DNA from: Antedon mediterranea
Taxonomy: Eukaryota; Echinodermata; Crinoidea; Comatulida; Antedonidae
DNA length: 64,000 nt
Direction: 5' to 3'
Assembly: GCF_964355755.1 (NCBI RefSeq)
Contig: NC_092670.1
Coordinates: 35,451,795 to 35,515,794 of the forward strand
Shown: piece after piece, positions 3,408-39,541 of the stretch
Position numbering within the stretch: the first letter of the stretch is position 1
Layout: each line of letters opens with the position of its first letter
The notes under the pieces: generated by a model
Databases searched by the model: none
What the model was told of the DNA's origin: nothing
What the model saw: only the letters and a program-made list of their open reading frames with translations
Translations under genes and position numbers: made by a program

Positions 3408-6400
3408 GTTGAAGTTTCATGGACAATATCTTGGGATAGAAATGTAGAAAAAAGTTTGAAACCGTTGTTTGATTGTCAGGGAAGAGATGAGATCAAAGGC
3501 GAAGGTCTTCTTTTTTGTCTTAACTGTTCAAATCCTGTGGCTTACCCCAAACCACTGCGACTAAGATGTGTTGGTTACAGCATACAGGATGGGTACAGTT
3601 TGGGCCGAAACTCGTTTGTATTTGAACCAAGAGATAAAAAGCAACCGTTATCAAAGTTTATGCTGTCGTAAGTAAACATATTTTACGTTAAAAAAAGATA
3701 CACATAGCAGAAACTTTCTTGGAAACTTCCCGTGAAACGTAGATGCATGTTTTAACTATATGGCCATTCAGAAGGACACAAACATTTTGTTCAATTGGTT
3801 CCACTGTAACTGTATTAACATTAAAACTGTATATTATTTTGAACTATTACACAACAGTATTAACTTGAATTGTACTTAGATGTTCTTCATATTTTCTTCA
3901 ATTTCAAACACTAATCAGCATTGTGCAATAAGCGCTATATAAGAACGAGTGTATTATAATTATTGTTTTTTAATAATTTCACAAGATATCAACGTTCCAA
4001 GAACATCAGTCGATCGAGTAGTTATTGGCGGCAAATATCAAATTACGGCGGCGGATCAATGTACAAATTATGGAGAATGATGGTAGATATTGACACGACA
4101 ATCGAAAACTCATCGCCAATAGCAACATTTCCACCTATATACATCGTGCAATACGCATGCGGAGATGTGAAGATTAAAATATCTGGTGTGTAGGCCTATC
4201 TTTTGTGTTAACATATATACGCCTAGATCATAAGTCTATTACAAAGGCCCCAGTTATCTAATGGTAGGACCTCTACGTCATATTAAGCAGAATGATTTCT
4301 TCAGCTTAACCATTTTACAATTGATATTAAAGTTCTATATGGTTCTTGTGTGGTTTAGAATGTCTTATGTTCCTTTCAAATTGATATAATAAATCGTAAT
4401 GACAATAATAATTTCTAAATCGAAAGCTTAAAAAGTACCATCTGTGTGTAGGTTAAAATGTTAAAAAAGTATATGATTTGATTAGGCTGTTTATACTGGA
4501 GGCCTACTTGGAAGAAACAGGAGTGAAGTTGTTACCTGGTGGTTATGATGCTTGGCTACCACTCCAAGGGTCCTGGGTTCAAGTCCTGTCACATGTCAGG
4601 ATTTTTTCTAAGGACCAAATTACTCCACTCCCAAAGACTTGTAATAAGACTTTGTTTATGTAGAGCATCTTGTGTATATGTTTGTCTTGTGAACCTCTGA
4701 GGGTCCGTAATGATCAGCAATAGCTGGATGGATCACCCTCATTAAAAAAAAAAACATTATTAAAAACAGGTTATTGTACATGTACTATAAGCTAGTTAAA
4801 CGTAACTATTATATCTTTGTTTTATATTGTTTGAAGGTTTGCATGGAGAAATCAAATATTAACATAACGTTTGCGGTACACCACGTATATTAGTTTCGCA
4901 TTCTTACTCGGCCTTAGAACGATCAAAGCATATTGATGAAACGTCGAGAAACTCAACAGTTCTTTTCAGAACTAATATACCTGGTGTACCGCAAACTTTA
5001 CATCAACATATCTTAATTGTTATTCTTTGGACTTTTTTTTTTGTAGTTTATGATCCCGACGGCGATAAAGTGAGATGCCGGTGGGCAAGTGGTCCAAGCG
5101 AATGTCCACCACAAATTATGAATGTTGAGCCGGTATGCGGTCAAATATCACCCCATACAATAATGGATGAGGTATGACACATAAAAGCCTATTCTAGCCT
5201 GAAATTGACACACGCTAATCATAGTTCTATAGTTTTTCTAATATACGGAAAATTTTCAAATTGTTCACGATGTCGAGCGTTGACTGTTGCTTTCAAGCAG
5301 CTGTGATTGATCAACGTAAACTCCTATGTTACAATGTGAATGTTGAAATTTTTTTTAATGAGATGTAAACTTCGAATGTTGTATTTTGAGCTACTCTGTA
5401 ATTTGGTCACTAACCGGATAATTATAACGCCCACACACAATATGACATTGCTAAATAAAACTTTCCGGGTAATGCTTCGGAGATATTATGTTTTCCCTTA
5501 TAGAATGATAGGCACGGCCGGTGATTAACCTTTTTGTGACTTTATAAATTAAGTTACTTGCTTCTCTGCTTTCAAATTAAAGACAAGAATCACTTAAATT
5601 AGGCATAAATTTGATTTTCAACTTACTTTTTACTAGAAATTTCAATGGCTTGGGTTTTTCAAAAAACGAATACATATGTTACTGTAACAAATACAATACA
5701 ATGGGTATCAGTGGCTGGATCTCTAGATACCGTAGATACAAATGAAATAAGAAAAGAGTTAAATCAAAACGGTAAAGTATATAATTAGGCCATATACACG
5801 GCTGCAGTCGCGTGCTCAAATTAGTGTTTACCGACCAACCGACTGTAGAGTCACGTTACACGCAACTAAAAAGACAGAAAGTGTTAATCTTTTGGAAACA
5901 CTAACATGGCTATATATCGGCTTTATACAATTATTTAGTTTTACTTAATTTAATTAATAGCATACAGAGCTGTATACATAGGCATAGTTAAACAGGCTAT
6001 AAAAAGGTACACAATAAGAGTGAACATAAAATATTCAATATTATTTTTTCTGTATTGAATATGATATCAGAATGATACTTATGCTAGTAATACATTATTT
6101 CAATTTTAGGATAACTGTGAATATACGTTTCCCGTGTCCTCACTTACCTACAGAAACCCCGATTATGGAAACCGAAAGAAAAGCTACTGGTTTGCCGTTC
6201 CGATAACTATCGAGGATTTCCGAGACGGCAAAAGACTAAGCAAAGTTCCATTGCAGTATTTAATAAGAGTAGATAAACGAGGTAGTGTATAATCATTACT
6301 CTTCATAATCATTTCATACACCTCTCCTAACTGTTTACAGGGATTGAAACCTCACCCATGTCCCCCTTCGCTGATGCTCTCAACAGGGACATGAATTAAA

Positions 6401-9400
6401 TTACCCGGGTAAAAACTATGCCTAAAAAGTTCGAAAAACTCTTTTTGATGTTTCGCTGAAATGACCAAACACAAGAATCCCTCCTGTCTACATGATAGAT
6501 GCTAATCTCCACATTTCCATTTACCTCTTCCTGGCATATATATGGAAATTAAATTCCACTGAGATAAAAACATCATTTTTCAAATTTAAAAACAAAAAAG
6601 TGCAATGATTAACACGTGTCTAAGCATTTCCGATATAGCCATAATAAAAACCCCAGTTGTTTGGAGATACGGACCTTTCACAAACATAGCTTTCCCTGCA
6701 GTTACGTGTACTCCATTGGGGGTCTACACAATTCTTCCCTGGCCTACTCTTTTCCTTACAAGTATTGAACTCATATCATCATATTGTTGTTAATTCGGCC
6801 TAGCGCCAAAACGTCTTATTACTAAATCTGCAACGTTATGGGGCACTTCTCCGGGGATTTGTCGTGAGACATGATGAGTTGTACTGAAGACATGAATAGA
6901 CTTCATCGGTTCCTAACAGAAATGAATTTCAATGGATGATCTATACTGTATAAGAAACTTTTTGGCAGTAACATGATATTAGGCCTATGTAGAAAATCTT
7001 TGTTTAATGTGACAATTTCCGTTTTTATATTGTTCAATTACTTAGCTCATTTCCCCATCTTATCTTCAACACCAGTCTAGCTAAATTGAATTGAATGACC
7101 CAATTTATAACGACATTTCTTATAATATTCTTAAAGATGTATTATCACCCAAAAACCTTAAAAATTAAGATAAATTAAATCAGATTTTAGTTTGGTGAAG
7201 TTATTGTGTAGTTTTAAATTCCGTAGAAAAAAACGGAAATAACAATGCTTAAAAAATTACAAAATAAACCAAAAACCCATTTGCAGCCAATTTGACTATT
7301 TTTACTTTAAATTTTTTTTTCGATCCAATTTTTTATCAAAATGGAAAACTATTATGTGACATTAAAATGGCATATTCTACAAAAAATGGGACAATACATC
7401 TTTTATGTTTCCTTTGTTTTGTATTAGTTCCTAGTGTATGTGAAAGGCCAACGTTGCAAATTGGACAAGAATGCCTTTATCTACTTGTGGGAGAAATGTG
7501 GATGCTTACAGTGAAGGCTGATAGTTCGTATGGGTATGACAATCCTAGTTTTTATTTTTTTAATTTCAACTATCTTTAAAGAGAGTAACTCTTCCAGTTT
7601 TAGTTCAATGAGTTAACCGATATTCAGGGGTCCTCTTTAATAAAATTAAAATACATTGCAAATTAACAATAGCAAGCAATTATCATTAAAATTAGGAATA
7701 TCACAAAAAAATATATAAAATAACATCTAATAAATCAATACTGTAGCTTTCATCTTTCAAATTTTAATAATTTTACAGCAAAAAAAAAATCGAATCTATT
7801 TAAATAATTTATAGCTACAGTTGCATATGGCAACATACTCTGTTTAGTTTTCATTACGATAATATTGTTCCTTAAAATATATATTAATTTTTTTGTAGTT
7901 ATCAATATGCTATTGTTTATTACAATTATGTTTTTTGTTGTTATTACAATGCTACTTGTCTTTTTACAATTCCACTAGTATAAGGGACATTGCGATTCTC
8001 CCTGGAACAACCGACATTACGATGTTTGAACTAAACGACGCCTCTACAAAAACTTCAGGATTTAGAAAAATAACTTGGACTCCCACTGCTGGTTTTACCG
8101 GACAACATTTCATATTCATCTACGCTATTGACAATAACGGGTAAAGTATCATTAAATTATTCACAAAGTCTAAACAAAAATAATGGAAAGAAAAAAAAGA
8201 AAACAAAATCCAAGGGAAAAAAACCAATTATAATAACTACATAATTATTTAGATAATGAATGTGAATTTAGATACAGGTAAATGTGTAGTTTGTTGAGCC
8301 ATGAAAAAAGCCATACGTACTATTGATAATAATACAGTAACGTTTTACAATGTTTTGTAACAAACCTAATTAGGGAATAGAGTGGCTTATACTATTAAGT
8401 GCCCATATATGGACATGGTGGTGTCATATCGTTACCATATTTTGGCATATCACTACCATTATATGGTGGCTTATACTATTATATTGCCTAAGGTTTGACA
8501 GCTTTGCATGTAAGTAACTGTGCCGAGCAATTAATATCGTATAAACAATTTCATCAAACTTTTAGAGTTTAAAATAAGTTTTATACAGTAAAGGTTAAAA
8601 GTTGAAAGCTCATAATTATGTGGATTAAATGATCTGATGGGGCTAATCATTCCTCATCATGGAGAGTAACAACTGTTACTAGTTATTCGGTTGCCTTATC
8701 CTCGAGTACATCCTAGAGGATTCTAAAAACATTCAAATATCTTGAAAATGAATTATTAAATATGTGTTTTTCTTTCTTTCAAAAATTGGGTCATTTATAG
8801 TTCATGTTTTAAATGTAAATGTTTGGTGTTAGTTTATGATCATTTAGTACTGTAATTTAATTTAAAAATGTCAATTAAAAAAAAAAATGTATTTTTCGAT
8901 CTTTCAAAAATTGGATCATATTTATAGTTTTTTGTTTGTTTTAAATGTAAATGTTTGATGTTAGTTTATGATAGTAGTATCATTTAGTATTTTATTTTAA
9001 AATAGCAATTAAAAAAGAAACATATTTTGTATTAATATTACAATTTTTTAGACTGATATTAAGCTAAGGAAATACAATTGAACGTTTACAGTACTTCACA
9101 GTAATTGTAATGGTAAGGGTCCTGCAATGAGAAAAGGTCATTGGATTAACATAAAGTTCTGTCTACACTATCAAACCATATATGGACATGATGATGTAAT
9201 ATCGCTACTATAACACATTTTAACAAGTTTTAAAACTAAATAATACATTTTGTAATTTTCCAAATATATACTAATAACATTAATTACTTTTTACTGTATT
9301 TTAATCATAGATATCGCAGTGAATATAAGACAATTACGGTTAATGTAATTCGTAAGTAGAAATTTCATTTTAATGTCATTTTTTATTTGATTAAAAAAGT

Positions 9401-12400
9401 ATTTTTCCCCAAAAATAAAAAAAAATTAATATTAATAAACTTAATCGCTTTCGTTAAAAAAGGAAATAAATATATACAGATAAATATTGTTTTCAATTTA
9501 TACAGTATTATCTTTAAGCTAATCGGAGAAATTAATTACCATAATTCCTTTAAAAAAATATAATGATTATGCTAATTGGACTCATTATTTATTATAGAAA
9601 AATGGGCTGATACAAAAATACCGGAAACACCCGAGGTCACAGGTCACTACCCAGCATCAAATAAAGTCTATGATATCGAGAATCGCTTCTGGAACATTTC
9701 ATTTGATCATACGGTAACGTGGTTATACTGTATTATATTGATGCGCTGGTTTCCACATGTTTATCTTATTTTTTATATAGAAGATTCCATCATGAACCCA
9801 GTAAAGAGTGAAGTTTGATACACGGCGCGGCAGTAAGAAAAGCGACAATGTAATGGTAGTTTGCGCATGCCTACGGAGTTGATCTATATTCCTCTTTATA
9901 ATTATTCAGATACAACGTCCAAGCGACTCCCGTTACGTCACTGTTTTTGATGATGCTGACAACAAAGAGACATTCAAAGTGGACTTGTCAAACGAAACTG
10001 CTGTCAAAATAAACGACCGGAAAACCTATCACTTTTACGGACCTAGGCTGGAGCGTGGCCAAACGTACCGTGTCGTCATCGATACTGGCGCTACGGAATC
10101 GCAATCATGTGACGCGTGCACTACCAGTTGCGCACGTTTTCCGTCAAAGGGTGTTACTTTTCAAGTGCTTACTGGAGAAATAGGTATTTTTTTTAATCTT
10201 AAAATTCTAACGTAATACAATAACAGTATAGTATTGTAATCATTACAGATAAACCGCAGCACCCATGAGGATCTGGTTATTGAACATGCTGGAAACATTG
10301 GTTTCTCTGTTTGGAAGTTTGAATAATAACAAAACTATCATTTTTTTTCGTAGTTGAGGTAACCGAATCTCCTTCTTGCGATTTGATCCTGCCAGAGGTT
10401 GACATTGGACGGAACTGTACCTATATACAAGTAGGTTCGATATGGCAAAGAACAATTACTGCAGTGAATACAAATGGGTGAGTTTAATGCTATACATTTT
10501 ATTAATGCTACCGGGTATTGCTAAACCCCGCGAACTAAACAAAAACATAGCAAACCCATTTGACCGAAATACAATTTATTGAATCATATATAGTGTACGG
10601 TACGACTCACTTGATAAAGTGTATTAGTTATAAAAATTAAATTATGTTTGTTAACTTTTTATTTTTGGGTTAAAACATCATTTTTTGGTTAAAAAGGATT
10701 GTGTTAACAACTGGTGTTTTACCCTATATATATTTGTTACAAACCAAAATGTCATTGTTTTGGCTGGCATACCAAGTGAGTCGTACACTATTCAATTACA
10801 TTTATTTCGGTTCAATTGCGTTTGCTGAGGATTTGCGGGATTTAGCAATACATATGCTACCAACTATATGCAGTCAAATTATGGTAAATTGTTGAAGAGT
10901 AGTAGGAGCATTATGTGACTCTCCTAAAACCTCAATTAAATTCAAAATACTTAATAAACTGCCCAAAAATTCAAAATTTCAGATTCATGTCACTGTTCAT
11001 TGAGGGCGTCAATGGAATGACCATAAGCAATGGTTATTTAAGAGGGGATTTATATGTCCGGAATCTGTCGTGGAAACCAAAGAAAGTTAACAAAGGACGG
11101 AATATAGTACAAGTTATAGCTATTGGAAGTCATGGGTAAAGTATAAATATTCATTCATTCATCAGTGGAAAATTACTTCTATTTATTGTAATTTGCATAT
11201 AAAATATACATAGAAATTATGTTTGCTCTGAGATATACAAAAACAGAAAAATTGAAAAACTAACAAAAACATTCACTCTCGTACGGTATACGTATTCAGT
11301 GCCCGAATGGCAGCTAGATAAAAGCTGTTACGAAACCTATTTGTACGAGAGACGATGGACCGGTAAACGTCTACCACTACGTAACACCTCAAATACATTA
11401 TGCATGGGATGAGTAGAATCTTGCGATATAGCATGTGTTTTTTAAATTAATCGATTTTCAAAAAAACGGATTCAATAGAACTCTGCTCTGTTCCAATATA
11501 CATGATGCGTATAATAGTTGTTCACATGACTGTATAAACCTATACAGAGTGTGTTAACGTTCACTTAAGCTTGGTTCCCACTAGAACGTAACGCAAGGAC
11601 GTAAACGCAACGCAAGCGTTTTAACCAATGACAAGCGAAGTTATAGACAGTTAGCAATCACAAGCGATCAAGCCATCGCTTGTGATTGGTCAATTCACTT
11701 GCGTTGCGTTACGTCCTTGTGTTGCGTCGCTAGTGGAAACCACGCTTAAATGCTATTGTTACCATGACCAATAAAACAATTACTGTATCTTACATTAAAG
11801 GCATAATACATTCCATTTACAATTACTCCTGGGTCTGAAAGCAGTTTATTCTGTAGAGAAAGTTCGTAAATGAGAAGTTCAGAAGAAAACTCTACACTTA
11901 GGAAAAATGACGAATGCCATGCAATTATGAAGACAATTAAAGTCTACTTCCATTTTTAACTGTCGTAATTGAGTTAGTAATAATAAATCATCTATTCTAA
12001 TATAACTAAAGTAATAATTGTATTTCTAACTTTACAATATAATGTCAACTAAAGATATTTTTTTACAAAACCATTGACGATCTTTCAGATTTGATTTGAT
12101 TGATAGAAAGGTAATCACCAATCAACTTAATACAAATGTATTAAGTTATTTACTTTTAGCAAATCAAAAAGAGGTTAGGATGTTTATGAGTGAATGTTAT
12201 TTTAAGATTCTAAAAAGTCCAAAAGCCAAACTGATGGTGTTCTAGTTAGTGTGAAGGACGCCACTAAGCAAGCAAGATCAATGAAGTTAATTTATTCTCT
12301 TTGTGGAAAATCCAATGGATTTAAACATAATTTAGGTGATCACGATACTTTTCTAGGCCAAGCTGATGTGATTTCCAAAAAAAAGATACAAAATGGTTTC

Positions 12401-14173
12401 ATCTTACAGGCCACCATATGGCAGGCAAACGCCACCAAAATCAACCATGTTGAACTAAACTGGAATTTGATTATAAAATATACTGTCATTTCTATAATTT
12501 ACAGAATGTCTAGCCTTACTGAAGAAATAGAACTGATTGTTGTCGGTAAGAACAAACAAATAATAATTCTTAATACAATAATAACAATGACAATAATATT
12601 CAATACAACTTTGTAGAAAGTTTACATCTTGTTCCTGATGCTCTTTCTACTACCGTCACTAATTGATACTTTTCTTTCTTCTTGTTGTTTTTACAATAAC
12701 AATTATAGGACTTCTTCGTCTTTATAACGTGAATTTCTTTGTTTATATAAAGTTTACGGTACACCACGTATCTTAGTTCTGAAAGGAACTGTTGAGTTTC
12801 TTTTTATCTCATCTTTGTTTAGGCATGTCTGTCACAAGCTTTTTGCTTTTTTTGAACATGCCTTCTTCAATTTAGTTACCTTTCTTTACACCATTTTGTA
12901 TACTGTTTTAATTTGAAGAAAATAAATGTTACTTTGATTGATTGATTGATTGATTGATTGAGTTTCTCGACGTTTCAATCAATATGCTTTGATCGTCTTT
13001 AGGAGTGAGAATTCAGAAAGTTCAGAAATTGAAATATGCTTAAGTCGCTTAAATGTATACACTACAGTATTCTGTTACAATATTGTTGATAGTGTAAATG
13101 TTGAACATGGACTATCATATTTTCAGACCAAGCACCAAAAGACCAAGATAATATCAGCGGACCAGCAGTAGTTACGAGAGAAAGCAAACCTCACCAGAAC
13201 GAAGTAGTAACATCACCAATTACTAACATTACTATAGCATTTGATATGAAGGTAATACTTCCTAAAATTAAAATGCTTTACATTATAGGAAAAAAATCCA
13301 TATTTACTCCTCGGTTAATTAGAGACAAAAATGTGAAAATATTATTTTTGTACATTTTTTTAAAAGATAACAAAACCTGTTAGTTCGGCATACATCCACA
13401 TACAACAACAGACAACCCCACACACCGTATATAAAATTGATGCGTCTGGTGAAGACGTCACAATCGATGACGTCACAGGACGTAAAATGACGGTTCTTCT
13501 ACCCGATGGAAGTATACATGGTTCATATAGAGTGGTAATTGACGCTGGCGTCGCTGTTTTTCTATTCTGTGATATTTGCAATAGTTCACCAGAGTGCAAC
13601 TCATTCAAATCACAACCAGCTCAATGGGAATTTCATATAGGTAAGACGATATTTAAAATTTCAATTTATTGAAGAATACAACAAATTCAACCTCACAGGA
13701 GAGCTCTTAAGTTTGAGTTATGGGTCTCATTTTTTAATATAGGGAAGTGGTGAACATAATATGTATATTTCTACAAGCGATTCCGATTAAAATCATACGT
13801 TATGGGCGCAAATTGTCTCAATGTTTATACACAGTGTCAAACTAATAATGTCCGGGATGGCGTAGTTTAATTAAAAAAATATTTATAATTTATTCCACTT
13901 GTTATAGTCGTTGTTCGAATTTTGAGAAAAGAAAGAAGTGGGAGAAAACTGTAATTTAGGCCGACTATAAGATTTGAGTTTTAGCCTATTCCGCTGTTAA
14001 TGTTCAGTGGTATCTCCTAAAAATCCTTATATCCTTAAATATTTAACAGTTCCAATCATTGTTTCTTGTTTTCAGACAAATGTGGTTGCAACACAATCCT
14101 TCAACGTTTGAACGATGCTGAAGAGCGCCTCTTGCGGTTAGAATCAGCTTTGCAAAATTTAAATTCCAAGTAG
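3408..14173 (+). CDS. Secreted multidomain protein with tandem cassettes and C-terminal coiled coil (5' partial)
   Basis: Fifteen exons join in phase: 3408-3667, 3986-4185, 5047-5171, 6110-6281, 7428-7533, 7979-8140, 9311-9351, 9598-9713, 9910-10183, 10354-10477, 10983-11135, 12505-12545, 13127-13251, 13412-13640, 14076-14173. They total 2226 nt, or 741 visible residues plus stop. In order: an N-terminal Trp/Cys domain (1-153); a domain opening with YDPDGDKVRCRWA (154-252), a signature I recall from uncharacterised invertebrate extracellular proteins; two copies of an Ig-like plus Big_5/SbsA-like module (253-485 and 486-709); and a tail with CGC followed by Leu heptads (710-741) that should oligomerise. 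The gene is paralogous to the one at 30062-39541. The signal peptide exon was not found, so secretion is inferred from the paralogue. The acceptor of exon 14 is weak. Function unknown; likely extracellular matrix or recognition. Confidence 0.83.
4528..4755 (+). mobile_element. tRNA-derived SINE
   Basis: The head looks like a degenerate tRNA, with an A-box-like TGGTTATGATGC near 4537 and a B-box GGTTCAAGTCC near 4576. The tail (TCTGAGGGTCC, then a GATCAGCAATAGCTGGATGG segment, then CACCCTCATTAAA) ends in poly(A) at 4743-4754. The same tail occurs at about 54973-55022, as expected when a SINE borrows a LINE 3' end. It lies in an intron. Confidence 0.7.
4867..5002. mobile_element. Palindromic MITE, family B
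   Basis: Inverted ends GCGGTACACCACGTATATTAG and the near-complement at 4970-4995 flank a core with AAACGTCGAGAAACTCAAC. It sits in the intron just upstream of the exon at 5047. A second copy, in opposite orientation and interrupted, is at 12747-13005. Confidence 0.65.
7131..7404. mobile_element. MITE, family C, next to a splice acceptor
   Basis: The ends read TTAAAGATGTATTATCACCC (from 7131) and GGGACAATACATCTTTT (to 7404), inverted copies of each other. Other copies are at 32891-33215, 51259-51600 and 57395-57705. The right end is about 24 bp from the 3' splice site at 7427, so the branch point or pyrimidine tract of that intron may come from element sequence. Confidence 0.7.
7428..10183 (+). 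other. Cassette copy 1 (five exons, phase 1-1)
   Basis: Exons of 106, 162, 41, 116 and 274 nt form a unit that enters and leaves in phase 1, so it can be duplicated without a frameshift. The first three exons encode an Ig-like domain (Cys in the first exon, a W-T-P motif in the second, then a final strand). The last two encode a domain resembling bacterial Ig-like domain Big_5/SbsA, with proline near the start and a TYRVVIDTGA strand near the end. The family assignment is from memory of the pattern. Confidence 0.75.
8380..8490. mobile_element. Diverged MITE, family D
   Basis: The stretch contains CCCATATATGGACATGGTGG, CATATCGTTACCATAT and CATATCACTACCAT, matching the interior of family D copies at 23377-23472, 34825-34955, 36238-36385, 47355-47460 and 56083-56227. 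The ends are degraded. A further fragment is at about 9163-9215. Both lie in introns. Confidence 0.5.
11566..11749. mobile_element. Palindromic MITE, family E (184 bp)
   Basis: A near-perfect palindrome bounded by TTAA, with arms GGTTCCCACTAGAACGTAAC and the complement near 11735, and an interior rich in AACGCAACGCAAGCG and CAATCACAAGCGAT. More copies are at 22273-22629, 31569-32045 and 38873-39035. It lies in an intron and has no ORF. Confidence 0.85.
12747..13005. mobile_element. Family B MITE split by a retroelement insertion
   Basis: The left part (12747-12801) and right part (12958-13005) together match the complement of the element at 4867-5002, though the right end is diverged. The break is occupied by 12802-12957, and the host sequence TTGAGTTTCT is present on both sides (12792-12801 and 12958-12967), which is a target-site duplication. 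Confidence 0.75.
12802..12957 (+). mobile_element. 5'-truncated retroelement with GATT tail
   Basis: A 156-bp insert ends in AATAAATGTTACTTTGATTG followed by (ATTG)n, typical of a non-LTR element 3' end with a short-unit tail. The 10-bp duplication TTGAGTTTCT brackets it. It sits inside a family B MITE. Confidence 0.75.
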
Positions 14174-28100: not shown

Positions 28101-28307
28101 ATATGTTTCAGGGATCTTATAACAACCTTTAAAGAGAAAAAAAGAACAAACAATAGCAACAACTATTTAACTAATAATTATAGTTAATAATAATCAATAG
28201 TAGGCCCTAGTACTAATAATGATAACGACAGTGGTGATGAGAGTAGCAATAGTGGTTATGATATACAGTAGTGATCATAATATCGGTGATAGTAGTGATG
28301 GTAAGTG

Positions 28308-28830
28308 ATGAAAGTAGTGATTGTGGTGGTGATATAGTGATGATGATATCAATGATAGTGATGAAAGTAGTGATTATGGTGGTGATATAGTGATGATGAT
28401 ATCGATGATAGTGATGAAAGTAGTGATTATGGTGGTGATATAGTGATGATGATATCGATGATAGTGATGAAAGTAGTGATTGTGGTGGTGATATAGTGAT
28501 GATGATATCGATGATAGTGATGAAAGTAGTGATTGTGGTGGTGATATAGTGATGATGATATTGATGATACAGTGATGAACGTAGTGATTGTGGTGGTGAT
28601 ATAGTGATGATGATATCGATGATAGTGATGAAAGTAGTGATTGTGGTGGTGATATAGTGATGATGATATTGATGATAGTGATGAAAATAGTGATTGTGGT
28701 GGTGATATAGTGATGATGATATCGATTATAGTGATGAAAATAGTGATTGTGGTGGTGATATAGTGATGATGATATTGATGATAGTAATAATTGTGATGGA
28801 AGTGATGAAAATAGTGATAGTGGTGGAGGG
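28308..28830. repeat. 53-bp minisatellite
   Basis: The word ATGAAAGTAGTGAT recurs at 28361, 28414 and 28467, a 53-bp period, for about nine degenerate copies. The units are built from GATGAT/AGTGAT words. Flanking DNA to about 29130 is a degenerate version of the same sequence. Confidence 0.85.
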
Positions 28831-29128
28831 TGATATAGTGACAATAATATTGATGATAGCAGTGATGATAATATTTATGATAGTAGCGATGATAAGTGAT
28901 GAACGTAGTAAAAGTAGTAATTAATAGAGGTGATAATATACTGTACAGTAGTGAAGAGAATATTTATGATAGTAGCGATGACAAGTGATGAAAGTAGTGA
29001 TAGTGGTGATGATATAATGATGATGATATTGATGATACAGTGATGAACGTAGTAAAAGTAGTAATAATAGAGGTGATAATATACTGTACAGTAGTGATGA
29101 TAATAGTTATGATAGTAGGCATAATAAA

Positions 29129-29802
29129 CGGAAGATGTGATGATAGTGACAATGTTGCCGATGATTGGTGATGATAGTGACAATGTTGCCGATGATTGGT
29201 GATGATAGTGACAATGTTGCCGATGATTGGTGATGATAGTGACAATGTTGCCGATGATTGGTGATGATAGTGACAATGTTGCCGATGATTGGTGATGATA
29301 GTGACAATGTTGCCGATGATTGGTGATGATAGTGACAATGTTGCCGATGATTGGTGATGATAGTGACAATGTTGCCGATGATTGGTGATGATAGTGACAA
29401 TGTTGCCGATGATTGGTGATGATAGTGACAATAATGCCGATGATTGGTGATGATAGTGACAATGTTGCCGATGATTGGTGATGATAGTGACAATTTTGCC
29501 GATGATTGGTGATGATAGTGACAATGTTGCCGATGATTGGTGATGATAGTGACAATGTTGCCGATGATTGGTGATGATAGTGACAATGTTGCCGATGATT
29601 GGTGATGATAGTGACAATGTTGCCGATGATTGGTGATGATAGTGACAATGTTGCCGATGATTGGTGATGATAAGTGACAATGTTGCCGATGATTGGTGAT
29701 GATAGTGACAATGTTGCCGATAATTGGTGATGATAGTGAGAATGTTGCCGATGATTGGTGATGATAGTGACAATGTTGCCGATCGTTGGTGATGATAGTG
29801 AT
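29129..29802. repeat. 31-bp minisatellite, about 22 copies
   Basis: The unit is GATGATAGTGACAATG followed by TTGCCGATGATTGGT, highly homogeneous. Because 31 is not a multiple of 3 and the complement unit has no stop in any frame, the minus strand is open in all three frames for 160-280 codons. The His/Ser/Ile-rich translations are artefacts. Confidence 0.95.
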
Positions 29803-30061
29803 AGCCTACAATCGTATGAATATGACCATTTGTTTGCCTGTCTATGGTTTGATTATTTCAGAGGACAAAAATTTCGTTTAGCCTTGAATTGCCCAAGGGT
29901 AATAACATTTACCTAGTTTTTAACAATGATTTATGTATTTCTTTATGATTACCATGGTAACCATTACATCGTACCTTTCATCACATATTTAACAACGTTC
30001 CAACAGGTAACAGTTCATTTGGAAGAATTTGGAAATATTTTAAACAGAAACGAAACAAACA

Positions 30062-33000
30062 ATGGTAAGATTGAGTTATTTCATTTTTACGCTATAGGCC
30101 TATTCTACAGTAAGACGAGAAATGTACTATCTAACGCAATGCGCAATTGAATCCGCGTCGTCGTAACAACATCATATTATGCGATTATCTTTGCAAACCT
30201 TTCTATTTTTTTGTTATGACTCTCCAATAAGGTTGAACCAAATTATTTAGGACAACAATTATGGGCCTATAATCTATGGTTGCTGGTTAGAGGTTACGTA
30301 CTCATTCCGCCTGAACATTCAGCCTTTTCAAAATAATAACTATTTCTCAACTTTTGTAGGATATCTGGTATCACGGTGTTTTACTATTAGGCGTTGCTCT
30401 TTTTTCTTCTGTGGAATCAACTCACTTCCGCGGAGGGATACTTGGATGGAGACCCGCTGAAGACAACAACAAGGTAGGCCTAAGTCTGAAAGAATTTATT
30501 TTAAAGAAAATAGTCGTTATTTACTTCAATAAACATAATTTCACTTACCATTGCAGCACTAATATATTGACATATCATCTAAACACGTATCCTATTTTGT
30601 AAATAGTTAATGAACCAATTGAATTGAATATGTTACTCTAAATTTCAATACTTACGTGGCTAGTTTGATTTCTAATAAATCCAGATTGTAATCTTCTGGC
30701 AAGTCGCATGGCGTCGTTCTTGGGACACACAAACCACGCATTGTAACACGCGAGGTGAAGTAAAAAACGGAGAGGGTGTAATCAGGTGGTGTCAAGAAGA
30801 AGAATGTGATACTAGTGGTAGACCCTCGTCTGAATTGATCCACGGACCACTTGAGTTTGACTGTACCGATTTTAATGAGATTGAAGACTGGAGCACCGGA
30901 GTAGGCTCGTACGAGTACCAGTACACGCAAACTGAATTTACTATACAGTAAGTCTCTTAATTTGAAGTAGGCCTAACTACCAACTTTTAACGAAAGAATT
31001 AATTTTCTATACTAATTATGTCGACATAATACACTTAAGCTACACAATAGGGCCACGGATTCCGTTCTGCAAAACGTGCGTATGTGAACGCAGCGCCCGG
31101 AAAACGTAACTAACACGGCTCAGTGTGAACGTACGGTTTCAAGTATAATAGCCAAAATATAATTTATATTATATATTAAAAATAAGAAAGCATTCAAGTC
31201 TTTAAATCATCATACTAATACTGATTATCTGCAGCTCTCTTACCGATGACAAAAAAAAAAACGCTGATGGTGCTTGCGTACAAGTGTGACGTTTAAGCTA
31301 GGTTCTCACTATGACGTAAGCACAACGTTAGACTTGCCCCAAGTCTGTAGTTATTTCAACGCTTTTCAATGTTTGTCTGAAATACAGTGGTATACATATG
31401 AAACGCCGTATGTGCCAAATTTATTTTTTTACTAATATTAAGTCAAAACTCCAGACTAGCACAACGTAAGCCAATGACAAGAGAATGTTCAGATAATCAA
31501 TCGCTTGTGATTGGTCAGATCACTTTTGCTGCGCCCTTGCTTTGGGTCTCTAGTGTGGGAATCAATCATTAAGCGTGGTTCCCACTAGCGACGCAAGTGA
31601 ATTGACCAATCACAAGCGATGGCTTATTCGCTTGTGATTGCTAACTGTCTATAACTTCGCTTGTCATTGGTTAAAACGCTTGCGTTGCGTTTACGTCCTT
31701 GCGTTACGTTCTAGTGGGAACCAAGCTTACGCGTGGTTCCCACTAGCGACGCAACACAACGACGTAACGCAACGCAAGTGAGTTGACCAATCACAAGCGA
31801 TGGCTTATTCGCTTGTGATTGCTAACTGTCTATAACTTCGCTTGTCATTGGTTGAAACGTTTGCGTTGCGTTTACGTCTTTGCGTTACGTTTTTATTTTA
31901 TGTCTTTAGGCAATGTTGCCAAGGATTACCAATAGTGAATTAATCACTGTCCTATCAGATAGGTGGTAATCCCCCTGATACAGGGGCTATTGTGTGAACC
32001 AGTTCACCGGGGTAACCCCTTACGTTCTAGTGGGAACCAAGCTTTAGCGTTGCGCTTACGTCAATACGTTGCGTCCAAGAGTGGCTCTGGAATGTGTCAC
32101 TTTTCATCTGGTTGTGTTCAGGCAGTGACCACATCACGTTTACTAATCTAAAAGTATTTAGTTTGTAACATTTCTTACAATACAGTGACCAAAGGTTTAT
32201 TTCAAAATACATCATATTTACTATTATAGTATACTACTTTTCAGGTACGCGCCACTTTATTCTAATAGCTACTGGATAAATCTTCAAAATTATGGAGACG
32301 CACAAAAATGGAAACTGGTCTCTAAAGTAAACATATCGGTGAGAGCCGATAAAGAAGGACGACTTAATTCATCACCGATTACATCTATGATACCAGTCAT
32401 CAAGGTACAAGAGGGTTGTAGTAGCACAATAAATATTCCAGGTAAGGAGTTACAGTATATGTGAAGTGAATAATATGGTATCCTTAAGGCCAACTCCGAC
32501 ACTGTCGTACGACGAGGCCTGACGAAACGTCTTGACTCGTCGGTGCTATCTGAGTTGAATCACGACGAGACGAGTCATCTTGAGATAACGACGGACTTTG
32601 TTTTTATGTCGTCGGAAGAACATTGAACACGTCGTATTTTCTCCCGACGAGGCGACTCGTCGGGCCTCGTCGTAGGACACTGTCTGAGTTGGCCTTAATT
32701 CAATTGGTTCTCAAACAATAATTTGTGACCAAACGAATTGTTAATGCCTCGGACGTGCACGAGTTCTATCACGCGTGATACCATGAAATGATCATCTACG
32801 CACAGTACGTTTACATATATTCCATTTTCCAGTCCATCCCGTTCACGTTAGTTTAAATGAACTAAAACAATTAAAACATATTGGACTGTAACATTAAAGA
32901 TGTATTCGTTCCACTGAAAAAACTATTTTTTTAATATGTCATTTTAATGTCGCATTTATTCTGTTTGACCAAAAATTGGATCGAAAACAAAAATATTTAC

Positions 33001-36000
33001 CTGAAAAAACTGTGATTTAAAGAAAAAAAAAGGTCAAATTGGCTGACAGCCAATTGGTTTTTGGGTAGAAGTTACCAGTTTATTTTGTCTTCTTATAAGT
33101 GAAAACATTGTCGTTTTTTTTTTATACGGAAGTGATTAACTTGATTAAAACTACAAACTGACATTTTTATTTTATCAATTTTCATTGTTCATGTTCTTGG
33201 GGGACAATACATATATATATATATAAACTTTAATTAGACACGAGACTGATGTGCAGTACAACACATCTTTAACTCAGCGATAACATCATAATTACTAAAT
33301 ATTTAATAGATAGCCTCTTTTCTAATTTTTGCTCACTATTAAAAAACCCAAATGTTTTTAAAGCACGTGATCCGGACGGTGACGTTGTCCGTTGTCGGTG
33401 GGCAGATGATAGTAAAAAGGAGTGCCCTGATCCTGTGAACGGTGCACGTGTTTGTGGTCCTCTGTCAGACGACAGCTATCTTGACCCGGTAAGGATACGA
33501 ATGTACCATGTTTAGTTCGTTATTTAATGTTGTCTTTTCATTAGCAGTTTTAATGAAGGGACAGTTGATGTTGTAATGACATTTAATGATCATCCGGACA
33601 TAGCATGCCTCCATGTATACAGTGATAATAACAACACGTATACACACAAGTTACGTACCGGTACGTCTCAACAATGCAGTACCACTTTTTAGACGCTTAT
33701 CGTTTTAGTTTCTTTGTTTGCAGGACACGTGTCAAATCACATTTAATGCTACGGGTAATCCAGGATGGTACGCTGTGTCCGTCATAATTGAAGACTTTGC
33801 ATTAAAGAACTCCACGGAAGCAATCAGTCAAATACCACTTCAATTTCTCATTAAAGTGTTCCCACTGTGTAAGTCAAGCCTAAAGTGACCATCCCAGTTA
33901 CTCACAAGGCGAACTTTAAACTTCCGCACCTATTAGCTGCTTTCACATAACCGAATGTTTATTGCGCCCCGTAGTGAGAACTAACAAAACAATAAGTCTA
34001 AACTCGTACAGTGTATAAGACGAGACTTGTGAATTCCATTTATTTTTGTTTAAATTACAGCCGACATTTGCAGAAAAATTTCTATAATCGAGCCAACTGG
34101 ATCATGTGACATCATCAGACCAGGTGAACATTGGCAAATGGATATAGTAGCCAAACCCGCAAGACCATCTGTTGAGTAAGTGTGTCTACTAATTAGTATG
34201 GGTTCCATACGGGGTTTTGACTTAATATTAGTAAAAAGGTAAAGATTTTGGCACATATGGCGTTTCATACGTATACTACTTGAGCTTGTATTTTTAGACA
34301 AAAAATCGAAAAAAAAAAAAAAATTTAAATAAAAAAGACAATAAATACAGACTTTGGGACAAGTCTATTTACTATTAAACGCTTTGAATTTAGTTTCAGG
34401 TGGTACTGGCATACCACCAGGTGACATTTACTGCAGTAACGCAGGTTGTTATAAATGACACACATTTTTGTAATTATATTGATAAATTAATGTATTATTG
34501 TTCATCTAGTATTACGCAGATTTCGACTTCCTCTCCATCCAACGTGGCTAAGACGTCCCTCATGCAGTATAATACGGGTACTGAAACACTATACAACGTC
34601 ACGTTGGCGTGGACACCGACAGACAACGATATCGGTGAACACTTTGTTTGCTTCTTTGCTACCGATGACGACGGGTTAGTAGAATTACATGTTCACTTTC
34701 AATATACATCAATAACTAAACGTATAAACCTGACTCCATAAAAATTTTAAAATCCAGAAGCATTTTTACTGAAACTAAATTTACGACGCTTCTCATGTTC
34801 GACAGTTTGGCGCGCCATACGTAAAGCCCCGTCTACACTCAAACTTTATGTGACAAAAAATGTGATGTGCCCATATATGGATATGATGATAATGTCAAAC
34901 CATATTAGGCATATCACTACCATATTTGGATACATCACACAGACAGAGCCTTAGATAGCCTAATATCGGGTAAATCTAAAGAACTAATCTCAAAGATGCT
35001 GAGCATTGTTAATAATAATAACAAAACAGAGATATGAACAATTATTATTTATATTTTCAGGGTCTCATCTGATCAACAATGTGTTACATTGATTGTCACA
35101 AGTGAGATTTTTTAATATCATTTTTACGCTCGAGTTCATTATTATTTTGTATTCTCTCCTTTAAAAGCATACTTATGAATTTCCATACATAAATACAGAT
35201 TCTTTCGAGGACTGTCTTGTTCTGTTGGTTTTTCCACTTTTCCATATCTAAATTCATAACAAGGTCTATTGCTCAAAAACAGATTCTTATTTAAAGTTTT
35301 TTCCGGTTTTTTTAAATATTTTATTTTACATATTATAGTAATTATATAAATCGTAAAAATGTCCAAAATAGGATCTTTAAATAGAAAGTATTTCATACAT
35401 TTTTACAATTATTTAGACGAACAACTTACCCCGCCTTCATTGTTGCCGAGTGAGTCTGTGCCGAACGATAGGATACCTTTAAACCCCGAAGCCGAGGAGA
35501 TGATATTCGTATTTAGTACCAAGGTAAGAATGCAGATCCGTTGTATACGTCGTGAGCCACACCCCGTGTATACGGGGCGCCGTATAGACACAAAAATATG
35601 CATGCATGTTAACTACAAATAATACTTTTTATAGTGGTTTTTCTTCCATTTATTATTTACAAATAGCATTTCATATCTGAATGTATATACAAACTATACC
35701 ATGTTGATAGATTAATGAGTGAAGTCAGTTAACTTCGTAATTGCATTCTTTCTTGTGTACACTAGATACAGCGACCAAAACAATCTAAGTACGTGTCAAT
35801 ATATAAGTTCCGTGGTGATACCTCGCGCCGGATTGCACGATATGATACGTCTCGGTCTAGACGAGTGCAGTTTCCTGAAGATGAGCCAACAACTGTAAGA
35901 ATCAATATCACTAACCTCAACCTACGGCATGACCGCATTTACTATGTCGAGTTGGACAGTGCAATCGTTCTAGGCCACTACAGCGACTCGTGCTCAGCCA

Positions 36001-39000
36001 CGAGACCTAACGATGGCGCAATGTGGTTTTTTGCTACAGGTAAGCTAAACGCTATTACCACTAGATTGAATCTATGACATGACCACGGATACATTTCCAT
36101 ATAAAAAAGGATCTTCAAATCGTGTGGGACCTAATTACATGTTTTTGTGAATATTTGTTCAAAATCTGATCCCGTTATCGTGCTACAATTATTATCCTAC
36201 GCACTGAAAATGTATACATTCTTGAATACACGTGCCTTAAGCTCTGTCACAAACTTAATGTGACAAAAAATGTGACGTGCCCTTATAGACATTATGATGT
36301 CATATCACTACCATGTTTTGACATGTCACTACCATATTTAGGCACATCTCACTTTTTGCCAAACTGTATGATATTGTAGTCAGAGCTTGAGTCCAAGGTG
36401 TTAGAGCACAGTAGAAAACCTCCTTCAGGAAACTCCTATTCAGTAGAAACGTGAAATAAAGGGACAATTTTCCATGAATCAAACGAGGGAAAAAATATGT
36501 TTTAACACTACGGTAAACCCTAAGGAGCACCCTATTAAAGGGATACATTGTTGGTCATGATTGTGTTTGGAGACTCTCCTGCTCAAAATCAAATTATAAT
36601 TCTAAATTAGCCGAAGAACCAACAACTACAGTACCACCGACAACAACCACTATGCCACCGACAACAACAACTATGCCACCGACAACAACCACTATGCCAC
36701 CGCCAACCCCAGAAGCCATCACTGCACCGGTAGCTGAATGTAGCAGCTCTGGTATTCGGGTCCTTGTTCCTAAACTTATCGTAGGTGATGTAGATCCAGG
36801 ACATTTACATTTCAATGACCCGAATTGCATTGGTCTATCTGCTAACAGGAGCGTTATATTAATGGAAACTGGTTACGATAGATGCGGAACAATCACAAGA
36901 GTAAGTCAAACCTTTAAAACAAATTATTCATAAGAAAATAAATGCTTTTAAAATCTAATAAACTATACGATGTAATTGTTTCATAATTGTGATTAATTGT
37001 AATTGTTTTAAGGTAAAGCCTAGTGGACGCGTTAGATACTTGAACACAATTTTCTCAGAGCCACTGCCTGTAACCGATACACGCATAACACGAGAGCGGG
37101 AAATTCAAATAAACATTGTCTGCGAAACGAGTGCAGATGGTGTTATTCACGCAGTTTTTGATCCTGATACGTCACCACTTGTCTTTGATATTCGTGAGAC
37201 GGCTTCCTTTAACTTTGCACTTCATATGTTTCACGATGAAACTTTCCTGGAGCCCTACACGGCACTGGATTACCCTATTCCCGTACAGCTACGTGAGCGT
37301 CTGTACTTCTCTGTTAGAGCATCAAATCCAGGATTACATATCAGCATAGATAGTTGTAAAGCTACACCCCAGGCTGATCCAGCTGCTCAGGATTATTTCT
37401 ACTTCATTCTCAATCGGTACGTAAACTAATCCATATCTCTCTAACCCATATTTCACGTAAGGGCGTGTGGCGCATTGTGTTGGACGTTTGACTACTGATC
37501 GTGAGATCGAGGTTCGAATCTAACTCTCACCGCATTGCTTGTATCCTTAGGCAAGATACTTTACTTACCTTTGCCTCTCTCCACCCAGGTGTATAAATGG
37601 GAACCCAATTAGATCAAGACACAACTTTGCGCAGATTACTAGCTGCATTATGGGAGTACGTTTAATCCCAAAAAAAATGACTGGGGTAATAATGTTCAGC
37701 GCTTAAAGGTTTCATAACATTATGCGCTATATAAATCCAGGATAATATTATTATTATTACTTCAGTTTGGTAATCAACCTTCATACTACTTAATAAAACG
37801 CCCTAATAACTCTTATTTAAAAAAAAACATTGTCTTCCTATACTCATTATAACTATACACTTACTATTTGTTTTTACGACAGTTGTTTTGAAGATAGTAC
37901 TGTAGAACTACACCAGTCACCGTCATTGTCGGAAGTGAGGTTCTCAATCGAGTCTTTTGAATTTCATCGACATGGGATGTTGGACACGGTAAAGAAAACA
38001 TATTAATTCCTTTAAAAGTATGTGACAGCTGAATCTTCATTCCTAGTACACCTTTTCGTACCCTTTAGAAAGATGGTTTTGTTATATTACGTCATTCATC
38101 TGCATTGAGGAAATTAAGCCCGTTGTGGACCCATGTCAGCCACAGTACAGCGCCTATCATGAACAAACGACTATTAGGAGTAAAGGGCCTTTCACACCTG
38201 CTCCGGCACGGTTCCGGTCCGGCGCCGGAACAGGTGTGAACGACCCTTAAGATGGATCAGTGCACCGGGGTAGCTCTCTCCCAAATGATACACTGGTTTC
38301 TTTGCATTCGATCAGTCAGGTGTGTACACTGGATCTTTAGTCTTGGAGTATTGTTCTACTAACAGAACAATTAGTCGTGGGGAGCCTTAAATCGGTGCCG
38401 ATACTACAGTTATGGTTGGTTTGTCCGGAGCCTGAGTTAACCGCTCGATCAGAAAATTCGACTGCTTTTTTATTCTCTATTCAAGGCAAGACATAATGTT
38501 CATCTAGGGTGGTACAATGCCATAGTAGTACCTCTTAATCAACATGAAAGCACCACTGTCAAGGAACCTAGATTACTTTACATTTCAAAATGACGAATAT
38601 TTAGAAAAAAAAACATTAACGCCCTTTTTTTTAAATTCAGATTTTCATCAGCTGTGATGTAAACATTTGCTCACAAAACGATGTCAATTCAGTTTGCCAG
38701 CAAGGATGTTCAGAAGATTTAGACGACCAATTAGAAATAAGTGATGATGCCACTCGAGGTGATGGTCCTCTCCGCAAACGCCGGTCCAGTGTCAATTCCA
38801 ACGCTGAAATCGAACATAGCGCACGCATACCCTTGATGTTTGCTGCAAGTAATGAACAAAGTAAGAATTCGGTTAAGCGTGGTTCCCACTAGCGACGCAA
38901 CGCAAGGACGTAACGCAACGCAAGTGAATTGACCAATCACAAGCGATGGCTTATTCGCTTGTGATTGCTGTCTATAACTTCGCTTGTCATTGGTTAAAAC

Positions 39001-39541
39001 GCTTGCGTTGCGTTCGAGTGGGAACCAAGCTTTAAACATTATATTCTTCCTTTTCTTTATGTAAATACGTTTATGAATTAAAAGGAAAAAGTCTGCGTAT
39101 TTATGGTGAAGTATAGGTATAATACTGTATATTCACCTAACGGTGGAATGCGTGTCGCGGCCAAACAGTCAATCAACACTGTGTTCCTTCAATTACGAAT
39201 ATATTGGTCTATGAAAACACTTTCATCGATTGTAAGGCTCTGAGTTTCTTATTAATAAACCATGTGGCCACATTTATAGTAAATGAAATGTAAATCAGTT
39301 GCTTGCTCTTGCAGAATCTGGTGACACGGTGACTTCTAATACTGGACTGTTTGACATCACAGTACTGGTGGTTAACATCTGTCTCCTTGTCATCGTTAGT
39401 GTTGCCACGGTTGTCGGCATCAAGCTAACAAGAAAGCTAACCCGCTTCAAACAAAGCAGCGACAATACGCATGTGGAGGAGACAAAGGCCACTAAATCCA
39501 TTATGAGATATGATAATAAAAGCTATGAGATTGATATTTAG
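30062..39541 (+). CDS. ZP-domain transmembrane protein with DPDGD, Ig-like and Big_5-like domains
   Basis: Sixteen exons join in phase: 30062-30064 (ATG only), 30360-30473, 30685-30947, 32245-32441, 33364-33488, 33724-33868, 34061-34175, 34510-34674, 35061-35101, 35417-35523, 35766-36039, 36611-36900, 37013-37416, 37883-37988, 38641-38860, 39315-39541. They total 2796 nt, 931 aa. In order: signal peptide (1-21, WYHGVLLLGVALFF); N-terminal domain beginning THFRGG (22-192); domain opening RDPDGDVVRCRWA (193-282); Ig-like (283-389); Big_5-like (390-516); TTTTMPP repeats (517-545); ZP domain (about 546-800) with four ZP-N cysteines (AEC, PNC, DRC, IVC) and ZP-C cysteines; furin site RKRR (828-831); transmembrane helix (871-892); 39-residue tail. 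ZP proteins polymerise outside the cell after cleavage between ZP and membrane anchor, and this layout fits that. The ATG-only first exon is inferred. Confidence 0.86.
31294..31566. mobile_element. Old family E copy carrying an inserted repeat
   Basis: The outer parts (GGTTCTCACTATGACGTAAG and TCTAGTGTGGGAATC) match diverged family E ends. The interior 31385-31472 is a different repeat, found inverted at about 34205-34290 (shared words TATGAAACGCC and TTAATATTAGT, read as complements). A related piece is at 59768-59800. Confidence 0.6.
31569..32045. mobile_element. Family E tandem dimer with nested SINE
   Basis: Copy one is 31569-31730. Copy two is 31731-32045 but is split by a 128-bp insert at 31892-32019. 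The insert is flanked by TTACGTT on both sides (31885-31891 and 32020-32026), and removing it restores the usual family E right arm. Confidence 0.85.
31892..32019 (-). mobile_element. SINE-like insertion
   Basis: Read on the minus strand it begins GGGGTTACCCCGGTGAACTG and ends in AGACATAAAATAAAA. The last 60 bp (GGACAGTGATTAATTCACTA, then TTGGTAATCCTTG) match the 3' part of the SINE at 52880-53065. It is bounded by a 7-bp target duplication. Confidence 0.75.
32484..32698. mobile_element. CpG-rich palindromic MITE, family G
   Basis: Inverted ends GGCCAACTCCGACACTGTCG and the complement at 32675-32694 are bounded by TTAA on both sides (32484-32487 and 32695-32698). The interior is dense in ACGACGAG and CTCGTCG words, unusually CpG-rich for this AT-rich window. 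Confidence 0.8.
32891..33215. mobile_element. MITE, family C
   Basis: It starts TTAAAGATGTATTCGTTCCA and ends GGGGGACAATACAT. The interior has CCAAAAATTGGATCGAAAAC and GGAAGTGATTAAC, shared with the copies at 51259 and 57395. It lies in an intron of the ZP gene. Confidence 0.75.
34825..34955. mobile_element. MITE, family D
   Basis: It begins AAAGCCCCGTCTACACTC and ends CAGACAGAGCCTTAG. Inside are TGTGATGTGCCCATATATGG and CATATCACTACCATAT. It lies in an intron of the ZP gene. Confidence 0.7.
36238..36385. mobile_element. MITE, family D
   Basis: It begins TTAAGCTCTGTCACAAAC and ends near GTAGTCAGAGCTTGAG. The interior has GTGACGTGCCCTTATAG and two ACTACCAT words, in line with the other family D copies. 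Confidence 0.65.
37456..37770 (+). mobile_element. tRNA-derived SINE
   Basis: A tRNA-like head with an A-box-like GTGTGGCGCATTGTG (about 37465) and B-box GAGGTTCGAATCTAAC (37509) is followed by a body with TTAGGCAAGATACTTTAC and a tail ending GCGCTATATAAATCC plus (ATT)n. A fragment with the same GCGCTATATAA word is near 3930. It sits in the intron between the two ZP exons at 37416 and 37883. Confidence 0.8.
38185..38252. mobile_element. Ends-only family F element
   Basis: About 65 bp made almost entirely of the two family F ends (CTTTCACACCTGCTCCGGC and GCCGGAACAGGTGTGAA) back to back, with TTAA at the right edge. It looks like an internal deletion derivative of the elements at 17136-17480. 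Confidence 0.8.
38873..39035. mobile_element. Family E MITE just after a splice donor
   Basis: It is bounded by TTAA at 38873 and at about 39032, with the usual GGTTCCCACTAGCGACGCAA end. It starts 12 bp after the exon end at 38860, so it occupies the donor-proximal intron. The right arm has lost about 20 bp. Confidence 0.85.

What the first reader, a model, noticed from the sequence alone, without database searches (positions are those of the whole stretch)
3408..39541. Two paralogues with swapped C-termini: coiled coil versus ZP plus membrane anchor
The genes at 3408-14173 and 30062-39541 share the N-terminal, DPDGD, Ig-like and Big_5-like parts (for example a 125-nt exon opening with DPDGD in both). 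One ends in a CGC plus Leu-heptad tail. The other ends in a ZP domain, furin site and transmembrane helix. One product would be a soluble oligomer, the other a matrix polymer, and they may bind each other through the shared part.
Basis: partly seen in the sequence, partly recalled or inferred. Interest (0 to 1): 0.75.

Follow-up and report, generated by a model that had tools for sequence, protein, structure and literature searches.

The report
Matrix-protein gene that lost ZP end
In an unnamed animal genome, two neighbouring genes share the same secreted front half, but one ends in the usual matrix-building ZP part with a membrane anchor while the other has instead a short tail that may tie several copies together; most relatives found in the genome keep the ZP part, so the odd one looks like a derived side branch rather than half of a matched pair.

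Summary
Gene A (3408-14173, plus a signal-peptide exon about 0.6 kb before the window) and gene B (30062-39541) share sequence, exon phases and several exon lengths from the signal peptide to an Ig-like/Big_5-like module. B continues into ZP-N, ZP-C, RKRR and a membrane helix. A has a second Ig/Big_5-like module and ends in a 32-residue Cys-Gly-Cys plus heptad tail; family profiles find no ZP exon in the window outside B.

The pair reading does not hold as given. The front half occurs at 25 loci that I could find in this genome; 21 carry ZP. A groups with two ZP-bearing genes 170-200 kb away (100/99), not with B (A+B rejected, p-AU 0.0185). So A most likely lost ZP and gained a short tail; the ends were not swapped. 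A soluble oligomer is plausible for A and a ZP polymer for B; nothing found shows that they bind each other.

The front module gave no Pfam match better than E 0.02, no PDB sequence match and no confirmed prokaryote relative. It also precedes other ends, at one locus probably CARDB and RHS repeats. Transcripts, orthologues and oligomeric state are untested.

The parts
3408..3667 (+). gene A, coding exon 2 (first in window)
   Evidence: open frame, matches B exon 30685-30947. Exon 1 (signal peptide, NHYLGG) lies upstream of the window at C1:35451116-35451223
3986..4185 (+). gene A exon 3
5047..5171 (+). gene A exon 4, 125 nt, DPDGD
6110..6281 (+). gene A exon 5
7428..7533 (+). gene A exon 6, Ig-like module 1
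7979..8140 (+). gene A exon 7, Ig-like module 1 (WTPT)
9311..9351 (+). gene A exon 8, 41 nt
   Evidence: one of 2 candidates
9598..9713 (+). gene A exon 9, Big_5-like module 1
9910..10183 (+). gene A exon 10, 274 nt, Big_5-like module 1
   Evidence: Pfam Big_5 4e-4, below cut-off
10354..10477 (+). gene A exon 11, Ig-like module 2
10983..11135 (+). gene A exon 12, Ig-like module 2 (weak acceptor)
12505..12545 (+). gene A exon 13, 41 nt
   Evidence: one of 10 candidates
13127..13251 (+). gene A exon 14, Big_5-like module 2
13367..13640 (+). gene A exon 15, 274 nt, Big_5-like module 2
14076..14173 (+). gene A last exon: Cys-Gly-Cys plus heptad tail and stop
   Evidence: best-scoring acceptor of 118 AGs between 13660 and 16000; heptad run reached by 22 of 20,000 shuffles
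30062..30064 (+). gene B start codon exon (ATG, donor GTAAGA)
30360..30473 (+). gene B exon 2: signal peptide, THFRGG
30685..30947 (+). gene B exon 3
32245..32441 (+). gene B exon 4
33364..33488 (+). gene B exon 5, 125 nt, DPDGD
33724..33868 (+). gene B exon 6
34061..34175 (+). gene B exon 7, Ig-like
34510..34674 (+). gene B exon 8, Ig-like (WTPT)
35061..35101 (+). gene B exon 9, 41 nt
   Evidence: one of 3 candidates
35417..35523 (+). gene B exon 10, Big_5-like
35766..36039 (+). gene B exon 11, 274 nt, Big_5-like
36611..36900 (+). gene B exon 12: Thr/Pro linker and ZP-N (acceptor could be 36617 or 36632)
   Evidence: Pfam ZP-N 3.3e-9
37013..37416 (+). gene B exon 13: end of ZP-N, ZP-C
   Evidence: Pfam ZP-C 4e-24
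37883..37988 (+). gene B exon 14: ZP-C
38641..38860 (+). gene B exon 15: end of ZP-C, RKRR site (about 38773-38784), hydrophobic patch
   Evidence: site and patch read by eye
39315..39541 (+). gene B exon 16: membrane helix (about 39356-39421), short tail, stop

Best explanation
A and B are two members of a large ZP-protein family of this animal. Shown by sequence: the members share a secreted front module (HYRGG to DPDGD) with Ig-like and Big_5-like domains; ZP was found at 21 of the 25 loci, B included; A has the front module, two Ig/Big_5-like modules, no ZP, no clear membrane helix and a 32-residue Cys plus heptad tail. Inferred: B is made as a membrane-tethered precursor, is cut at RKRR and polymerises through ZP into an apical or egg-coat-like matrix that displays the front module. 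A descends from a ZP-bearing ancestor shared with L007 and L008, lost ZP and anchor, and is secreted as a small disulphide-linked coiled-coil oligomer that displays the same kind of head free of the polymer. It would then compete for, or cross-link, whatever the heads bind. Exon phases made the change easy: the Ig/Big_5 block begins and ends at phase-1 introns, the phase at which the ZP block begins, so the block can be doubled and followed by another end without a frame shift.
For: Exon lengths and phases; B's ZP domains; family count; A with L007+L008 at 100/99, A+B rejected p-AU 0.0185; no ZP exon in the window outside B with profiles made from the family; A's signal-peptide exon; the tail exon has the best acceptor of 118 AGs in 13660-16000, 29th of 3,061 plus-strand AGs of the window; heptad run in 22 of 20,000 shuffles; A's frame stays open over about 2.4 kb of coding DNA on a branch of 1.58 changes per column, and A keeps 23 of the 26 columns invariant in the other nine rows of the front-module alignment, 11 of 12 Cys/Trp.
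Against: A is one of the three long end branches of the tree (with L023 and L014_13), so relaxed constraint is possible and its place is less sure. The exon model was chosen by hand to stay open, and three of A's acceptors score poorly (3408, 3986, 10983). A last exon has no phase test: any AG would be read in the frame that the previous donor gives. The tail found no second copy in the genome with a short, weak query, and no orthologue was available. 24 of 990 31-residue segments before stops in the window, the tail among them, reach the same heptad run; of the 12 printed most are hydrophobic, some mixed. A has one borderline hydrophobic stretch (1.65). A membrane helix after ZP was found in only 2 of 10 scanned loci, so tethering may not be the family rule. 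No expression data. On re-check I lowered this from 0.62 to 0.58, because the phase argument for the tail exon was void and the background rate of heptad runs is not negligible.
Confidence: 0.58

Rival explanations
1. One reading: A and B are a dedicated pair, a soluble oligomer and a matrix polymer that bind each other through the shared part.
For: They lie 16 kb apart on one strand and share the front half.
Against: A's closest relatives are L007 and L008, which have ZP themselves; A+B as sisters is rejected. With 21 ZP-bearing loci B is not a unique candidate partner. No test of binding was possible.
Confidence: 0.1
2. Gene A is a decaying or truncated copy; the 32-residue tail is a chance open frame after a good acceptor and has no function.
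For: Long branch; no relative of the tail found in the genome; Big_5 and CopC matches below cut-off; heptad runs of this length in 24 of 990 segments before stops.
Against: All 16 coding exons can be read without a stop and end in GT/AG, a signal peptide is present, and conserved Cys, Trp and Asp positions are kept; a neutral copy this diverged should have stops. The tail's acceptor is the best in 13660-16000 and the highest of the 30 acceptors scored for both genes.
Confidence: 0.2
3. A's 3' end is misread: the transcript continues to further exons downstream or the tail is one of several alternative ends.
For: No transcript evidence; sequence only.
Against: Family ZP-exon profiles find nothing convincing in the window outside B (next best E 0.1, minus strand); CUB-coding frames on the opposite strand begin near 15.6 kb; 14076 outscores the other 117 AGs to 16000.
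Confidence: 0.11

Closest known systems
ZP-module proteins (egg-coat and apical-matrix ZP proteins; amphioxus BbZP set, PMC3543715, passages read)
   Same: Signal peptide, upstream domains, ZP module, basic cleavage site, and in B a membrane helix, as reported for some BbZPs
   Different: Upstream domains are the HYRGG/DPDGD module and Ig/Big_5-like repeats instead of the LDLa and vWFA named there; gene A has no ZP at all
Nematode ZP family with PAN, EGF or vWFA upstream and standalone ZP-C proteins (PMC7456536, passages read)
   Same: A family in which parts of the ZP architecture differ between paralogues
   Different: There ZP-C remains in the standalone proteins; here A lacks both ZP-N and ZP-C and keeps only the upstream part
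Pfam Big_5 (PF13205) and CopC (PF04234)
   Same: Weak matches to the two repeated modules of A (4e-4 and 0.0016)
   Different: Both below the curated cut-off; B gives none at E up to 0.5
Pfam SIBA-E_N, integrin beta-like protein A-E N-terminal (Dictyostelium Sib proteins, recalled)
   Same: One of 10 front-module members matches at E 0.022
   Different: The family consensus and two members, one of them already among the ten, give no such match at E up to 10; a lead only

Membership tests
ZP-module protein (gene B) | ZP-N domain | tested here: met
   Pfam PF23344 3.3e-9, 37.4 bits, cut-off 24.7
ZP-module protein (gene B) | ZP-C domain | tested here: met
   Pfam PF00100 4e-24, 85.7 bits, cut-off 24.6
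ZP-module protein (gene B) | conserved cysteines, eight or more in the module | tested here: met
   read by eye from the translation: four in ZP-N, six in ZP-C; connectivity not tested
ZP-module protein (gene B) | basic cleavage site, hydrophobic patch and membrane anchor after ZP-C | tested here: met
   RKRR, ARIPLMFA and helix; helix; patch assigned by eye. A further R-X-R-R match lies in the Big_5-like part
ZP-module protein (gene B) | polymerises into filaments | not testable with these tools
   needs protein
ZP-module protein (gene A) | ZP-N and ZP-C domains | tested here: not met
   no Pfam ZP match at E up to 0.5; family ZP-exon profiles find only B in the window
Front-module family of this genome (genes A and B) | HYRGG to DPDGD module with conserved exon phases | tested here: met
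Big_5 (gene A modules) | score above the curated cut-off | tested here: not met
   21.5 bits, cut-off 23.6
Coiled-coil oligomer (gene A tail) | heptad pattern | tested here: met
   run of 7 (8 with Cys), 22 and 13 of 20,000 shuffles; background 24 of 990 segments. No coiled-coil predictor was run
Coiled-coil oligomer (gene A tail) | forms a disulphide-linked oligomer | not testable with these tools
   only single-chain prediction is offered

The most novel reading that the evidence does not exclude
The HYRGG-DPDGD head is an undescribed animal recognition domain that this lineage places in front of exchangeable ends: ZP polymers, a covalent coiled-coil oligomer (A), and CARDB/RHS or TIL/EGF/HYR ends. 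Gene A is then a natural ZP-less modulator that occupies the same ligand sites as its ZP sisters and so caps or cross-links the matrix.
Probability: 0.2. Interest if true: 0.7.

Novelty: new variant of a known kind. Interest (0 to 1): 0.42.

Why it matters
It documents a ZP family in which one member appears to have discarded the whole polymerisation module and kept only the presumed recognition part, which would let the jobs of the two halves be separated experimentally. It also points to a front module of about 250 residues, found at 25 loci of one genome and joined to several different ends, for which ten members gave no Pfam match better than E 0.02.

Tried and rejected
Tail search in the whole genome with 30 residues: only itself, with a single first-look candidate. 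Prokaryote relatives of the front module: none confirmed among 44 pattern matches. PDB sequences: none at E up to 10. Structure prediction of the front module on the intronless copy with exon fragments as alignment: mean pLDDT 50.9, blocks up to 79 only in the DPDGD half; Foldseek gave no match at E 0.001 or better, the best ones mainly Ig-like; nothing is concluded from it. Two earlier fragment alignments were discarded because MAFFT misplaced exons. COX1 search to learn the organism: no match. Rfam: no match in the window at gathering scores. Repeats of the window: those listed do not overlap the coding exons, except the 21-nt Thr/Pro repeats in B exon 12. A membrane-helix candidate downstream of L010 was dropped by the stricter filter. 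Literature: seven searches of the held open library (ZP with Big_5 or amphioxus, SibA, ZP with RHS, ZP with coiled coil and furin, skeletal matrix, the peptide motif itself, ZP-less isoforms) listed no paper that I recognised, from title or abstract, as dealing with this module; papers outside that library were not searched.
Full report
What was checked. The window lies in an assembly of 354 Mb in 18 contigs, at C1:35451795-35515794; by its genes it is an animal (inference). I built both genes by hand from open frames, splice sites and phases.

Gene A. Fifteen coding exons from 3408 to 14173 join in frame without a stop. The first exon is outside the window: C1:35451116-35451223 encodes a signal peptide followed by NHYLGG and ends with a phase-0 donor. 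The product is 792 residues with 10 N-glycosylation motifs; after the signal peptide its most hydrophobic 19-residue stretch scores 1.65, borderline, inside the second Big_5-like exon. It holds two consecutive Ig/Big_5-like modules, each with a 41-nt and a 274-nt exon.

Gene B. Sixteen coding exons from a lone ATG exon at 30062 to 39541 give 931 residues (924 with the most downstream of three possible acceptors at exon 12, the version measured). It has one Ig/Big_5-like module, a Thr/Pro linker, ZP-N and ZP-C, RKRR, a hydrophobic patch and a membrane helix.

Shared part. Corresponding exons have the same phases and some have the same length (125 nt for DPDGD, 274 nt, 41 nt). The 41-nt exons were picked by common length from 2, 10 and 3 candidates; peptides like B's 41-nt exon also turned up at two paralogue loci. 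The three central exons are 41% identical. The likeness is beyond chance.

The tail of A. The last exon begins at the best-scoring acceptor of 118 AGs between 13660 and 16000; it ranks 29th of 3,061 plus-strand AGs of the window and highest of the 30 acceptors scored for both genes. Any AG there would be read in the frame the previous donor gives, so phase is no support. The residues have an unbroken 3/4-spaced run of seven hydrophobic positions, eight with Cys (22 and 13 of 20,000 shuffles). As background, 24 of 990 31-residue segments before stops in the window, the tail among them, reach seven; of the 12 printed most are hydrophobic and some mixed. Whether the tail makes an oligomer is inference.

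The family. A search with the front half of B gave 84 matches. Grouped by position I count 25 loci with the front module: 8 on C1 near 15.2-15.3 Mb, 11 more on C1 (A and B included), and one each on C2, C3, C5, C6, C7 and C11. ZP exons were found at 21 of these 25: all but A and the C5, C6 and C11 loci. The counts are lower bounds, because the genome search scores only its best candidates, and at the three other ZP-less loci only the fetched DNA was read. The C3 copy is intronless. Downstream of the module the fetched DNA shows TIL, EGF and HYR (C5), an EGF-like stretch at 0.0033, below its cut-off (C6), and HYR_4C, CARDB and RHS (C11).

The tree. On 19 front-module rows (of 25 loci; those with at least three of the four exons in fetched DNA, plus the intronless copy) A joins L007 and L008 at 100/99; holding A with B is rejected at p-AU 0.0185. 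L007 and L008 both have ZP exons. Caveat: A is a long branch, as are L023 and L014_13. In the module tree, of 20 rows, A's two modules are unresolved long branches, so whether they arose by duplication within A is open.

No ZP near A. Profiles made from 14, 15, 13 and 6 family exons, B's included, find each B exon (E 3.9e-18 to 9.9e-43); the next best match in the window is E 0.1, on the minus strand at 19959-20024. So A has no ZP block and no convincing remnant in the window.

Constraint. A has a branch of 1.58 changes per column yet can be read without a stop and keeps nearly all of the front module's invariant Cys and Trp. A neutral copy this diverged should have broken frames. This argues that A is used, but not that its tail is. 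Three of its acceptors score poorly.

How it most likely works. B, with the anatomy of ZP precursors (domain pair, basic site, hydrophobic patch, anchor), would be cut and polymerise, displaying its head. A would be secreted and held together by cysteines and a short coiled coil, displaying the same kind of head without polymer. The Ig/Big_5 block begins and ends at phase-1 introns and the ZP block begins at one, so doubling the block or following it with another end needs no frame shift. Steps shown: gene structure, domains, family distribution, tree. Steps inferred: secretion, cleavage, polymerisation, oligomerisation, competition.

Against my own reading. A membrane helix after ZP was found in only 2 of 10 loci scanned (B and the C2 locus; a looser scan had one more candidate, at L010), though R-X-K/R-R-type sites are visible in five sequences (B, L001, L002, L010, L016). 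The tail found no relatives, and no orthologue was available. Big_5 is only a weak match. After re-checking I lowered the main reading from 0.62 to 0.58 for the reasons given under evidence against, and raised the two rivals about A's tail slightly.

Known relatives. Passages of PMC3543715 describe amphioxus ZP proteins with LDLa and vWFA domains, one with a membrane domain, three with furin sites. Passages of PMC7456536 describe nematode ZP architectures with PAN, EGF and vWFA and standalone ZP-C proteins. Passages of PMC13361971 review regulated ZP polymerisation. I recall, from no call, that some DMBT1 products differ in their ZP part; one search gave only a listing.

Verdict. Observation confirmed; interpretation partly supported: a real difference of ends, but most likely a one-sided loss in a large family, not a swapped pair.

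Noticed in passing
L018 and L022 (C11:22084000-22100500, minus strand): A gene that begins with the same front module has a phase-compatible junction toward exons with HYR_4C, CARDB and TIG-like (below cut-off) domains, and RHS repeats and an RHS-associated core follow on the same strand (PF05593 7.4e-23, TIGR03696 1.5e-19). By these domains it does not look like a teneurin (teneurin make-up recalled); that it is all one gene is likely but not proven.
   Followed up: partly
L001:1060-3438 (C3:5504559-5506937): Intronless copy of the front-module/ZP gene with one open frame of 793 codons; it ends soon after a run of arginines, with no membrane helix by eye.
   Followed up: partly
L023 (C5:22530000-22539999): The front module is followed on the same strand by TIL, EGF and HYR domains.
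   Followed up: no
window 15627-19762, minus strand: Three CUB-domain open frames (Pfam 7.1e-15, 9.5e-9, 1.2e-13) between genes A and B on the opposite strand.
   Followed up: partly
window 28198-29921: Tandem arrays of about 53-nt and 31-nt units with strong GC skew just before gene B.
   Followed up: no
window 11566-11749, 22273-22626, 31550-31903, 38873-39049: A dispersed repeat of about 177 nt sits in introns of both genes and between them, in both orientations.
   Followed up: no
G000:C10:21409211-21514977 and other C10 sites: A separate cluster of ZP-C exons: eight hits in this stretch and three elsewhere on C10, all scoring higher than gene B's exon.
   Followed up: no
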